Source: Prevotella sp. (GTDB lineage: Bacteria; Bacteroidota; Bacteroidia; Bacteroidales; Bacteroidaceae). Taken from it: DNA of 11,455 bases. The stretch spans positions 1,531 to 12,985 of the forward strand of contig JAJPYV010000285.1 in the NCBI GenBank assembly GCA_021204735.1, written 5' to 3'. How positions within the stretch are numbered: position 1 is the stretch's first letter; each line of letters opens with the position of its first letter. Both the position numbers and the translations under genes were made by a program. Below the pieces are notes generated by a model, which was given only the letters and a program-made list of their open reading frames with translations, ran no database searches and had not been told where the DNA came from. This document shows, piece by piece, positions 1 through 11,455 of the stretch.

Positions 1-5
1 TGTGT

Positions 6-49
6 CGTTTCTCCGAAACGAGCGGACTCAATAAATTGTGTCCCTACAT
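6..49 (-). repeat. REP-like element, copy 1 (upstream of hisC)
   Basis: Read on the - strand this starts with ATGTAG, whose GTAG (44-47) is followed at once by an imperfect palindrome at 24-43. That palindrome has 9-base arms, one T:T mismatch and an AA centre. After a short linker comes a second hairpin at 6-20, with a 6-bp stem CGTTTC/GAAACG and a 3-base loop. A GTAG or GGAG tetranucleotide at the foot of an imperfect hairpin is the hallmark of REP sequences mobilised by RAYT (IS200-like) transposases. Bases 17-49 match 1252-1284 exactly over 33 bp. No RAYT gene is in the window, so the REP assignment rests on structure only. The element may continue beyond the left edge. Confidence 0.65.
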
Positions 50-80
50 TAGCTGTGAGCTACTTGCGATTTGAGGATGA

Positions 81-115
81 AGTTAGAAGTTTACTTTTGC
101 TTGTGTATTTTCTTG
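81..115 (+). repeat. Composite 7-mer / TGCTTG repeat, copy 1 (degenerate)
   Basis: This is the weakest of five related intergenic repeats. A degenerate 7-mer part (AGTT then AGAAGTT, 81-91) is followed by TGCTTG at 98-103 and TTCTTG at 110-115, spaced 12 bp start to start. It occupies most of the hisC leader. I see no convincing TAnnTTTG promoter between it and the hisC start. Confidence 0.5.
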
Positions 116-142
116 AAATTGTGAATTAACAGTTGGGGATTG

Positions 143-1186
143 ATGAAAGGATTAGAAGAACTTACGAGGGGGAATATATGGAAGTTGGAGCCATATAGTA
201 GTGCACGGAATGAGTATAGCGGGCACAAGGCGACCGTGTTTTTGGATGCCAATGAAAACCCATACAACAGTCCGTATAACCGCTACCCCGACCCATTGCA
301 GTTGGAATTGAAAGCCCGCATATCGAAGGTGAAAGGAGTGAGGGCAGAGAACATATTCCTTGGGAACGGATCAGATGAGGCAATAGACTTGGTATATCGT
401 TGTTTTGCCTGTCCCAGAACGGACAATGTGGTAGCTATGGAACCAACATACGGCATGTATAAAGTATGTGCCGACATAAACGATGTGGAATACAGACCAG
501 TATTGCTCGATGACCATTACCAGATAACGGCAGAAAAATTGTTGGGTGCATGCGACAATAAAACTAAGATTATTTGGATATGTTCACCGAACAATCCAAC
601 AGGTAATAGTATCAACAGGGAAGAAGTAATAAAGACGATAACAGGTTTTGAGGGCTTGGTGGTGGTTGACGAGGCATATATCGACTTCTCGCGATTGAGT
701 TCGTTGCGCTATGAGCTCGACAGATACCCAAATCTTATAGTGCTCAACACATTCAGTAAGGCATGGGGTTGCGCTGCCATCAGATTAGGCATGGCATTCG
801 CCCAAAAAGAAATCATCGACATATTTAATAAGGTGAAATACCCGTACAATATCAATCTGCTGACGCAAGAGCAAGCGATGAAAGCGTTGAAAGACCCATT
901 TGAGGTAGAAAAGTGGGTGCGCTTGCTGTTGCAGGAGCGTGGAAACATGATGGAAGCATTCAGTATGCTGCCATTCTGTGAGAAAGTATATCCGTCGGAT
1001 GCGAATTTCTTTCTCGTGAAAGTGAAAGACGCACAAACCATTTATGATTATCTTGTGAGTATGGGGATAATCGTTAGGAACAGGACAAAAGTAAAATTGT
1101 GCGGCAATTGCCTGAGAATAACTGTGGGAAGAAAGAGCGAAAACACGGAGGTGCTTGCGGCGCTGCGCCGCTGGGGGCGGAATTAA
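143..1186 (+). CDS. hisC: Histidinol-phosphate aminotransferase
   Basis: This is a PLP-dependent fold-type I aminotransferase (347 aa, normal length for HisC). It converts imidazole acetol phosphate and glutamate to histidinol phosphate and 2-oxoglutarate in cytoplasmic histidine synthesis. HisC hallmarks are LDANENP (34-40), RYPDP (47-51), CSPNNPTG (147-154), DEAY (176-179), the PLP lysine K206 in TFSKAWG, R214 in AIRLGM, and R325 near the C-terminus in LRITVG, which fits the substrate-carboxylate arginine. The whole protein reads like the Bacteroidetes HisC type. I chose the ATG at 143; a TTG directly before it (140) keeps the frame but is less likely. It is the only + strand gene here. hisB does not follow, since the next gene is convergent, and hisD, if present, lies beyond the left edge. 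A REP-like element lies on each side. The function call is firm; its separation from the other his genes is unusual. Confidence 0.95.
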
Positions 1187-1231
1187 GAATTAAGAATTCT
1201 TTTTTGCTTGGCACCTTGCTTGCGTTGCTTG
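1181..1231 (+). repeat. Composite 7-mer / TGCTTG repeat, copy 2
   Basis: A tandem 7-mer part with unit AAGAATT (1181-1198) overlaps the last codons of hisC. It is followed by TGCTTG at 1205-1210, 1217-1222 and 1226-1231, spaced 12 and then 9 bp start to start. A further isolated TGCTTG lies at 1295-1300. The repeat runs almost directly into REP-like copy 2. Confidence 0.7.
1185..1205 (+). terminator. hisC: Weak candidate terminator of hisC
   Basis: AAGAATT (1185-1191) can pair with AATTCTT (1195-1201) across a 3-base loop, and the T run extends to 1205. The stem starts inside the hisC stop codon. It has only one G:C pair, so termination would be weak. The same bases form the 7-mer part of the composite repeat, so the hairpin may be incidental. 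Confidence 0.3.
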
Positions 1232-1240
1232 ATAGAAATT

Positions 1241-1284
1241 CGTTCTTTCAGAACGAGCGGACTCAATAAATTGTGTCCCTACAT
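1241..1284 (-). repeat. REP-like element, copy 2 (between hisC and the convergent permease gene)
   Basis: This has the same architecture and orientation as the copy at 6-49. GTAG on the - strand (1279-1282) abuts the imperfect palindrome 1259-1278, and a second hairpin lies at 1241-1255 (stem CGTTCT/AGAACG, loop TTC). Compared with copy 1, the second hairpin has two stem pairs changed on both arms (T:A to C:G and C:G to T:A), so pairing is kept. It sits in the 121-nt gap between two convergent genes and could act as a bidirectional 3' hairpin, although neither stem is followed by a T run. Confidence 0.7.
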
Positions 1285-1307
1285 AGGATAACGTTGCTTG
1301 ACAAATT

Positions 1308-2555
1308 TTACTCGTACTTCATGGACTTGGCGGGGTGGATGTGAGAGATGAGGTAGCTGGGGGCGATGAGTACAAAGACGCTGATGAGGAAAGTGGCGAT
1401 GTTGAGGAGAATTATTATCGGGATGTTTATTTCCACAGGTACCACCTTAACATAATAAGTAGAAGGGTCAAGTGTTACTAATCCTGTGTATTTCTGGATT
1501 AACATAAGAGCAATAGCGATTATATCGCCAAGAAGCATCCCACGACCGATGATGAACACAGCAAACCACAGGAATGTTTTACGCACTAACTTGTTGCCGG
1601 CACCCAAAGCTTTCAAAATACCAATCATGTTAGTACGTTCAAGGATGATAATAAGCAGACCAGAAATCATTGTGAAGCCAGCCACGCAAAGCATCAAGAT
1701 GAGGATAATCCACACATTCAAGTCAAGCAAGTCGAGCCAGGCAAAGATTTGCGGATTAGACTGCTGAATAGTTTCCGAAGAATACGTCTCATTATACCTA
1801 TCGAGTCTGCGGTTCACCTTTTGGATCAGGACATCCTCAACATCATTTAGTTTATTGAAATCATTTACGGTAAGTTCTGCACCGCTTATTTGGTCATTTT
1901 CCCAACTATTCAAACGGACGGCAGAATAAAGGTCAGTGAAACACACAGCTTTGTCGTATTGTGTAAGGTTAGTTTCATACACCCCCGCGACAGTAAATCT
2001 ACGAGTGCGCACATCATTCTTATCAAAGAAATAAGCGAATACCCTATCTCCTGTGTCTAATTTCAGTAAGTTAGCCATAATCTTCGAGATAAGAATCTTG
2101 TTTTGGCTGACCGAATCGCTGAAAACCGGAATGCTGCCGCTCACCAAGTTGTTGTGAATAAAAGTAGTGTCGTATTCAGGTCCGACGCCCTTGAACATCA
2201 CACCGAGGAAATCGCTGTCAGTCTTGAGAATACCCTGTTTCATGGCAAAACGTTGCACGTGGTTCACCCCATTGATAGTCCTTAGAACATCGAGCATACT
2301 ATCAGGCATGCAGATAGGCGACTGAATATTGTTGTGCAAGTAATAGAAGTTAGCCACCGTGATATGACTTCCGAAGCCGATAACTTTGTCACGGATGCCA
2401 TGCTTAAAACCGAGTATGATACACACAGAGATAAGCATTACCGCCAAACCGATGGCGACACCAGCCGTAGCGATACGGATAGCCGGGCGACTGACCTCCT
2501 GTTTGTCGCTGTTGTCCGAATAGATACGTTTTGCTATGAAAAGCGGTAAGTTCAT
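1308..2555 (-). CDS. LolC/LolE-type ABC transporter permease (FtsX-like), orphan
   Basis: This is a 415-aa inner-membrane protein with the LolC/E layout. It has a short cytoplasmic N-terminus (SRPAIRIATAGVAIGLAVML, 22-41), TM1 at about 28-50, a periplasmic domain of about 225 residues, and TM2-4 at about 280-305, 328-353 and 376-402. The coupling-helix motif ERTNMIGILKALGAG (306-320) and the C-terminal ending HPAKSMKYE are typical. LolCDE releases lipoproteins from the inner membrane to LolA. Bacteroidetes often encode one or two such permeases without an adjacent LolD ATPase, and none is adjacent here. The gene follows the aminotransferase gene by 39 nt and is probably co-transcribed with it. 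It converges on hisC across REP-like copy 2. The family call is firm. A lipoprotein-release role is inferred from the family; a MacB-like export role is the alternative. Confidence 0.88.
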   Translation of the reverse strand: MNLPLFIAKRIYSDNSDKQEVSRPAIRIATAGVAIGLAVMLISVCIILGFKHGIRDKVIGFGSHITVANFYYLHNNIQSPICMPDSMLDVLRTINGVNHVQRFAMKQGILKTDSDFLGVMFKGVGPEYDTTFIHNNLVSGSIPVFSDSVSQNKILISKIMANLLKLDTGDRVFAYFFDKNDVRTRRFTVAGVYETNLTQYDKAVCFTDLYSAVRLNSWENDQISGAELTVNDFNKLNDVEDVLIQKVNRRLDRYNETYSSETIQQSNPQIFAWLDLLDLNVWIILILMLCVAGFTMISGLLIIILERTNMIGILKALGAGNKLVRKTFLWFAVFIIGRGMLLGDIIAIALMLIQKYTGLVTLDPSTYYVKVVPVEINIPIIILLNIATFLISVFVLIAPSYLISHIHPAKSMKYE

Positions 2556-3840: not shown

Positions 3841-3898
3841 AAAATTAAAAATTAAAAATTAAAAATTAAAAATTCACTTTTGCTTGAGAGATTGCTTG
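3841..3898 (+). repeat. Composite 7-mer / TGCTTG repeat, copy 3
   Basis: Nearly five perfect units of AAAAATT (3841-3874) are followed by CACTT and then TGCTTG at 3881-3886 and 3893-3898, exactly 12 bp apart. The 7-mer part covers the -33 region of the aminotransferase promoter on the - strand. The rest of the 173-nt gap up to the GH53 stop codon holds no other clear element. Confidence 0.8.
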
Positions 3899-3970
3899 AG
3901 GGAGGTGAAAATACCAGAATTTTCTTTTTTTGCAGTTAAGATTGAAAATGTTGTATTAAGATTATACACA

Positions 3971-5387: not shown

Positions 5388-5458
5388 GTTAAAAGTTAAA
5401 AATTAAAAATGCGATATTGCTTGCGTTGCCACTTGTAGATAGCTTGCGTATTAGCTTG
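5386..5458 (+). repeat. Composite 7-mer / TGCTTG repeat, copy 4
   Basis: Units of AAAAGTT and AAAAATT are mixed in one tract (5386-5410). They are followed by TGCTTG (5418-5423), CACTTG (5430-5435), AGCTTG (5441-5446) and AGCTTG (5453-5458), spaced 12, 11 and 12 bp. The last motif overlaps the stop end of the FtsX-like permease gene. On the other side the tract touches the palindrome and possible -33 element of the GH53 gene. Confidence 0.7.
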
Positions 5459-11338: not shown

Positions 11339-11368
11339 CAAAGATAGTGAAAAATCGGAGATTTTCAA
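11339..11368 (-). promoter_or_regulatory. Bacteroidetes promoter of the nucleoside transporter unit
   Basis: On the - strand the -33 element TTG (11366-11368, in CTTG) and the -7 element TATCTTTG (11339-11346) are 19 nt apart, the expected Bacteroidetes spacing. A start site a few bases downstream would leave a leader of about 25-28 nt before the ATG at 11306. It is the best promoter in the window and may serve six genes down to 5451. The 7-mer repeat tract lies directly upstream of the -33 element. Confidence 0.75.
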
Positions 11369-11423
11369 GTTAAAAGTTAAAAGTTAAAAGTTAAAAGTTC
11401 ATTTTTGCTTGCGAAACTGCTTG
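11367..11423 (+). repeat. Composite 7-mer / TGCTTG repeat, copy 5
   Basis: Nearly five units of AAAAGTT (11367-11399) are followed by CATTT and then TGCTTG at 11406-11411 and 11418-11423, again exactly 12 bp apart. Its first bases double as the -33 element of the nucleoside transporter promoter. The remaining 32 bases to the window edge show nothing recognisable. Confidence 0.8.
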
Positions 11424-11455
11424 AGAAGGTAGAAAAAACGGAGATATTTAAAGTT

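What the first reader, a model, noticed from the sequence alone, without database searches (positions are those of the whole stretch)
6..1284. Two REP-like elements with a GTAG foot and a covarying second hairpin bracket hisC
The copies at 6-49 and 1241-1284 share 33 identical bases and the order GTAG, imperfect 20-base palindrome, linker, short hairpin (read on the - strand). The short hairpin differs by paired changes: T10:A16 corresponds to C1245:G1251, and C11:G15 to T1246:A1250. Base pairing is thus kept while the sequence changes, which points to selection for structure in DNA or RNA. The GTAG tetranucleotide at the foot of a hairpin is what RAYT transposases recognise in known REP systems. 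REPs are best studied in Gammaproteobacteria, so a Bacteroidales family with a two-hairpin unit could be new.
Basis: partly seen in the sequence, partly recalled or inferred. Interest (0 to 1): 0.7.

Follow-up and report, generated by a model that had tools for sequence, protein, structure and literature searches.

The report
Two-hairpin REP repeats of RAYT type
The two short repeats beside hisC belong to a scattered family of hairpin-forming DNA repeats that related species carry next to a dedicated transposase gene; each repeat has an unusual second hairpin, and the paired repeats examined combine two different kinds of it.

Summary
In detail: two copies of GTAG + imperfect hairpin (hp1) + 2-nt linker + second hairpin (hp2). 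It is not chance. A covariance model finds 38 copies (E<=0.01) in the host's 81%-complete assembly and at least 140, 70, 27, 14 and 6 in five congeners, and both helices covary. In three congeners (G052, G335, G064) one ~175-aa Y1/HuH transposase of REP-associated type lies between the same two genes, and an inverted pair (REPIN) of this unit starts 31-33 nt after its stop codon. So this is a REP/REPIN family of a RAYT system. No RAYT was found in the window's own genome; the syntenic site lacks it but holds one REP of matching type and orientation. The position beside hisC is not special: no copy was found beside hisC in 9 congeners. The unusual part is the architecture. hp2 comes in two main kinds, and all 72 REPINs examined, plus 5 in the own genome, combine one of each; common descent could explain this. 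Two-hairpin units recur beside RAYTs of other lineages in the genus. REP heterodimers, spacer stem-loops and Bacteroidetes RAYTs are already published, so I call it a new variant of a known kind. The role of hp2 is inferred.

The parts
5..49 (-). REP copy 1: GTAG foot at 44-47, hp1 at 24-43 (4 bp, A.A mismatch, 3 bp, 4-nt loop), linker 22-23, hp2 at 5-21 of the CGTT kind (CGTTTC/GAAACG)
   Evidence: C344:1535-1577, 67.4 bits
1240..1284 (-). REP copy 2: GTAG foot at 1279-1282, hp1 at 1259-1278, linker 1257-1258, hp2 at 1240-1256 of the CGTT kind (CGTTCT/AGAACG)
   Evidence: C344:2769-2812, 70.6 bits
140..1186 (+). hisC-like aminotransferase gene between the two copies; a neighbour, not part of the element

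Best explanation
The repeats are REP elements, solo members of a REPIN family served by a RAYT. Shown: the unit is GTAG-hp1-2 nt-hp2; in relatives it mostly forms inverted pairs of about 111 nt; three congeners carry an intact RAYT-like gene with such a pair directly downstream. Inferred: the RAYT binds GTAG plus the mismatched hp1 on single-stranded DNA, cuts nearby and moves or copies the REPIN. The two unlike hp2s cap the folded REPIN's stem of about 29 bp as two separate ears, which stops the inverted repeat from zipping further and may mark a left and a right end. Also inferred: the window's lineage has lost its RAYT (or the assembly misses it) and now holds mostly solo, probably immobile copies.
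For: Copy numbers: 38 own matches at E<=0.01; 140, 70, 27, 14 and 6 in G064, G052, G067, G124 and G004, 150 candidates scored in each, so lower bounds at least for G064. Covariation score against shuffles: 0.470 vs 0.223 (15 own copies), 0.248 vs 0.134 (94 distinct rows from relatives), 0.363 vs 0.169 (58 distinct rows of own genome and G067); 0 of 500 shuffles reach it each time. RAYT: Pfam Y1_Tnp 50.1 and 49.5 bits, cut-off 23; NCBIfam REP-associated tyrosine transposase is the best family, 76.0 and 68.3 bits, under its cut-off of 80; E. coli TnpAREP 4er8 is the best PDB match of the profile, E 1e-7; HuH, LWQ and Y..(x)NP.RW motifs invariant in 8 sequences. REPIN 32, 33 and 31 nt after the RAYT stop in G052, G064 and G335, same neighbours, G-kind half nearer the gene each time. 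In the own genome the same two neighbours enclose one reverse CGTT-kind REP and no RAYT, matching the distal REPIN half. Fold of whole REPINs as DNA: z -6.4 to -14.5 in 4 of 4.
Against: No RAYT in the own genome, nor found by these searches in G124 (97% complete) and G004 (99%), which still hold copies. No excision or insertion was observed; the hisC comparison with G067 gave no clean empty site. In the shuffle controls the number of further pair types is not raised, and pairs with two-sided change are reached by 24 of 500 shuffles. Alignments A3 and A4 are fitted to the model and lean towards its structure. The family score of the RAYT lies under NCBI's curated cut-off.
Confidence: 0.82

Rival explanations
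1. The unit acts mainly in RNA at gene ends, as a terminator, processing or stability element; its spread is a by-product.
For: Hairpins with compensatory changes; of 72 REPINs 21 lie between tandem and 16 between convergent ORFs, 9 between divergent ones (18 undecided, 8 overlap an ORF of >=100 aa). One terminator-like site in window 1-1500 is hp2 of copy 2.
Against: One terminator-like site is what shuffles give (mean 1.1). The GTAG foot, the inverted pairing and the link to the RAYT are not explained.
Confidence: 0.08
2. They are ends or short derivatives of an ordinary IS200/IS605 insertion sequence rather than REPs.
For: The RAYT shares the Y1 fold family with IS200 transposases.
Against: One gene of this close kind per genome at one shared locus while the repeats number up to 140; the second hit in G052 is only 35% identical. 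NCBIfam scores the REP-associated family above IS200.
Confidence: 0.05
3. About hp2 only: the unlike pairing is inherited from one founding REPIN and has no function.
For: hp2 subtypes travel together and outer flanks are shared within subfamilies. In two other two-hairpin lineages of the genus like-with-like pairs occur (L424 168/325, L149 2115/2257).
Against: 54 distinct hp2 combinations among 72 pairs; the base pair at the foot of the CGTT-kind hp2 and several hp1 pairs differ between the own clade and the G052 clade, yet no like pair was seen in 77.
Confidence: 0.5

Closest known systems
REPINs of Pseudomonas fluorescens and their RAYTs (PMC3116915; passages read)
   Same: Inverted REP pairs of about 100 nt that can fold as one hairpin, compensatory changes, single RAYT gene nearby, singlets beside doublets
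   Different: Described there as symmetrical (palindromic); here each half has a second hairpin and the two second hairpins differ
E. coli BIMEs: y with z1 or z2 REPs (PMC8266576, passages read)
   Same: GTAG foot, mismatch inside the REP stem, unlike REPs combined in inverted pairs, RAYT
   Different: In E. coli the REP itself differs between partners; here hp1 is alike and an added hairpin differs
Agrobacterium CGTC-3 REP dimers (PMC3733652, section 14 read)
   Same: Inverted dimer with two distinct stem-loops at the spacer ends, 20-23 bp apart; here 22-25 nt in 65 of 72 pairs
   Different: CGTC foot and no associated transposase there; GTAG and a RAYT here
Bacteroidetes RAYT subclasses 2.4 and 2.6 (PMC6006769; sections 13, 23, 25 and passages read)
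   Same: RAYT-like proteins in Bacteroidetes with repeats beside the gene and elsewhere in the genome; 2.6 has 'atypical secondary structures'
   Different: The subclass of these RAYTs was not assigned here, and the figures and supplement showing the 2.6 repeats were not available, so identity with them is not excluded

Membership tests
REP element (GTAG superfamily) | GTAG at the foot of a short imperfect palindrome | tested here: met
   Read in the listed copies; a few carry variants such as ATAG, GTAT or GTGC (L250, L254, L281, L290; L382)
REP element (GTAG superfamily) | many dispersed copies, mostly outside genes | tested here: met
   Counts; 8 of 72 REPINs overlap a mechanical ORF of >=100 aa
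REPIN-RAYT system | inverted REP pairs as the main unit | tested here: met
   144 of 157 units in 82 loci of G064, G052, G124 and G004 lie in pairs; but only 5 pairs were seen in the own genome, and 0 of 20 units of G067 has a partner matched by the model
REPIN-RAYT system | single RAYT gene flanked by the cognate REP | tested here: met
   3 of 3 RAYTs above 50% identity; not met in the own genome, where no RAYT was found
REPIN-RAYT system | RAYT binds and cuts the REP as single-stranded DNA | not testable with these tools
   known for E. coli TnpAREP (PMC8266576, passages)
IS200/IS605 insertion sequence | several gene-bearing copies bounded by the end structures | tested here: not met
   one gene of this close kind per genome at one shared locus
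Rfam RNA family | match above gathering score | tested here: not met
   0 matches in the window; 3 sub-threshold microRNA matches in 9 loci at E<=1

The most novel reading that the evidence does not exclude
A REP subclass in which every mobile REPIN needs two unlike second hairpins: the pair acts as left and right end signals for the RAYT, or as a lock that stops the inverted repeat from extending, and has been kept while both stems were re-paired between species.
Probability: 0.3. Interest if true: 0.62.

Novelty: new variant of a known kind. Interest (0 to 1): 0.46.

Why it matters
It adds a REPIN-RAYT system in a probably Prevotella-like genus, with intact genes in three species and copies persisting in relatives without a detected RAYT, which suits tests of what keeps REPINs alive. 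The unlike pairing of second hairpins turns the open question of why REP dimers are so often heterodimers into a simple swap experiment.

Tried and rejected
Rfam: 0 matches in the window; 3 sub-threshold microRNA matches in 9 element-bearing loci. Viral contigs: 0 exact matches to a 27-nt REP pattern. Outer-flank complementarity as a sign of target palindromes: the excess over shuffled pairings was weak and uneven. Flanks are conserved by subfamily instead, strongest within 20 nt and fading by about 40-75 nt, so the true ends of the moving unit were not fixed. Empty-site alignment at hisC against G067: too diverged. The two copies as ends of a composite transposon carrying hisC: rejected (same orientation, close pairs expected, absent beside hisC in 9 relatives).

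Selection of rows: the 80 stretches were picked from the listed, higher-scoring matches, not from all 140/70/14/6. With L136 and L137 they gave 157 hits; 72 pairs were formed and 13 hits were unpaired and not typed. Typing was done twice: 71 unlike and 1 undecided (L234); 70 unlike and 2 undecided (L212, L230); no like pair in either, and each undecided one was called unlike by the other script. The script anchored on hp1 by mistake and its counts were discarded. The five own-genome pairs were typed by eye, and two of them (C38, C125) include an interrupted half. The labels two/one/none of the 26 RAYT loci were set by eye, and the group 'one' there also holds the rows labelled 'none'.

Full report
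Observation. Copies at 5-49 and 1240-1284 are as described. Read from GTAG the unit is hp1 (4 bp, A.A mismatch, 3 bp, 4-nt loop), a 2-nt linker and hp2 (7 bp, 3-nt loop); single-strand DNA folding reproduces both hairpins.

Family. The window lies in G000, an 81%-complete assembly of 438 contigs. hp1 with up to 3 mismatches occurs at 22 distinct places, 16 exact; control 0. hp2 follows hp1 in discrete kinds: CGTTTC/GAAACG, CGTTCT/AGAACG, CGCCCC/GGGGCG (or with a mismatch), TTGCCC/GGGCAA and TTGTCC/GGACAA; three of the 21 loci shown there lack a clear hp2 (L004, L015 cut by the contig end, L019). A covariance model from 15 own copies gives 38 own matches at E<=0.01. Of 159 genomes, the own one included, 16 have a match at E<=0.01, seven of them a single one (G012, G020, G021, G030, G130, G118) or two to three weak ones (G132, G091). 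With deeper scoring (150 candidates each) G064 has 140, G052 70, G067 27, G124 14 and G004 6; G011 (88) and G071 (52) match only weakly, best E about 1e-5 to 1e-4, and carry other GTAG repeats beside their own RAYTs.

Selection for structure. Covariation scores are 0.470 vs 0.223 shuffled, 0.248 vs 0.134 and 0.363 vs 0.169, 0 of 500 shuffles each time. Two-sided changes occur at 11, 6 and 14 of 15 pairs (shuffles reaching that: 1, 24 and 1 of 500). Sliding the partners drops paired cells from 89-96% to 27-51%. Against: the number of further pair types is not above shuffles in any of the three, shuffles ignore relatedness, and the last two alignments were fitted to the model. Within hp1 the inner stem is re-paired in G067 (CAAT/ATTG, CAGT/ACTG, CGAT/ATCG).

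The transposase. The own genome has no Y1 transposase hit and no hit to the G052 protein. G052 and G064 each carry one ~175-aa gene of this kind between a membrane-protein gene and a flippase-like gene (both names are recalled from sequence type, not tested), and a REPIN starts 32 and 33 nt after its stop. A wider scan of 398 genus genomes found 24 with a relative at E<=1e-25; the only new one above 50% identity is G335 at 61%. It lies between the same two genes (94.5% and 91.1% identical to those of G052) and has a REPIN 31 nt downstream, the G-kind half nearer the gene, as in the other two. So 3 of 3 close RAYTs agree. At the same site the own genome has the two neighbours with one CGTT-kind REP in the orientation of the distal REPIN half and no RAYT; G124 and G004 have other sequence there and G045 a short gap, all without a model match; G067 gave no hit to the first neighbour. 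This suggests, but does not prove, deletion of the RAYT with half of its REPIN.

REPIN architecture. In 82 loci (80 picked stretches plus L136 and L137) 157 units give 72 inverted pairs: 37 in G064, 28 in G052, 6 in G124, 1 in G004. 59 of 72 span 109-113 nt, and 65 of 72 have 22-25 nt between the two matches. All combine one CGTT-kind with one CGCC/CGCT-kind hp2: 71 and 1 undecided, 70 and 2 undecided, no like pair in either, 54 distinct combinations. The five own-genome pairs (C11, C32, C93, C38, C125), typed by eye, are also unlike. None of the 20 fetched G067 loci shows a second match. Four REPINs folded as DNA form a long stem (GTAG with CTAC, hp1 with hp1', about 29 bp in the best three) capped by separate hairpins, hp2 among them. 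Like hp2s would let the stem run on; unlike ones stop it. Whether this is selected or inherited is open.

Generality. In 26 RAYT loci GTAG-hairpin-linker-hairpin occurs at 35 of 579 GTAG sites against 29 of 2828 sites of four control tetranucleotides (chance folds are in both). By eye nine of the 26 loci carry clear two-hairpin units, six of them with other sequence; in five of those hp1 has the form GGGC-A-GGC...GCC-A-GCCC, with the A.A mismatch at the same place. On a RAYT tree the nine need three changes against 7.7 on shuffling, 0 of 500 as low. In two of these other loci like-with-like pairs occur, so unlike pairing is shown for the window's family only.

Literature. PMC8266576 (passages): E. 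coli RAYT needs GTAG and a mismatch bulge in the REP stem, acts on one strand only, and cuts at CT; the A.A mismatch here is a plausible counterpart (inference). PMC8049555 (passages): REPINs are more common in E. coli genomes that have the RAYT. PMC3116915 (passages): REPINs are symmetrical and singlets are taken for decayed doublets. PMC3733652 (abstract, sections 7, 14, 16, passages): GTAG repeats were listed for Proteobacteria, Cyanobacteria, Chloroflexi and the PVC group, not Bacteroidetes; heterodimers, their suggested protection from SbcCD, and stem-loops at spacer ends are described. PMC6006769 (sections 13, 23, 25, passages): RAYTs of Bacteroidetes are known. Listings showed no paper on this family; subscription journals and preprints are not held.

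Verdict. A real RAYT-linked REP/REPIN family with a second hairpin that differs between the halves: a new variant of a known kind, of moderate interest. The two copies beside hisC are ordinary solo members.

Noticed in passing
L059, L064, L069, L078 (same orientation) and L007 1313-1430 (opposite); further copies in L188, L190, L191, L193, L196: A second, unrelated structured repeat of about 65-70 nt (TCGATTAAGCGAG - variable hairpin - GCCGAGCGTGAG - TTCAC) sits in the hp1 loop of five REP copies of the own genome, with AAT or AATTT on both sides; the core pattern occurs 10 times in the own genome (one probably inside a gene), control 0. It looks like a small mobile element that uses REP hairpin tips as targets.
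   Followed up: partly
L219, L221, L235, L257, L260, L266, L290: Seven of 157 units in G064, G052 and G004 carry another insert of about 20 nt (AGCTT..CGCTGACC.TTGGTT) in the hp1 loop.
   Followed up: no
G-kind hp2, for example in L215, L238, L252: The G-kind hp2 often has an A.G or G.A mismatch near its loop in place of a base pair; 29 of 94 distinct rows are unpaired at that position.
   Followed up: no
window 1181-1222, 3842-3914, 5394-5435, 11367-11439: AT-rich tracts of repeated AAATT/AAGTT words followed by TTGCTTG words recur between genes and also lie near many REP copies in the own genome and G067.
   Followed up: no
L003, L009, L059, L065: Tandem partial copies of the 5' end of the unit (CCAATGTAGGGACACA repeated at about 19-34 nt) precede some complete units.
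   Followed up: no
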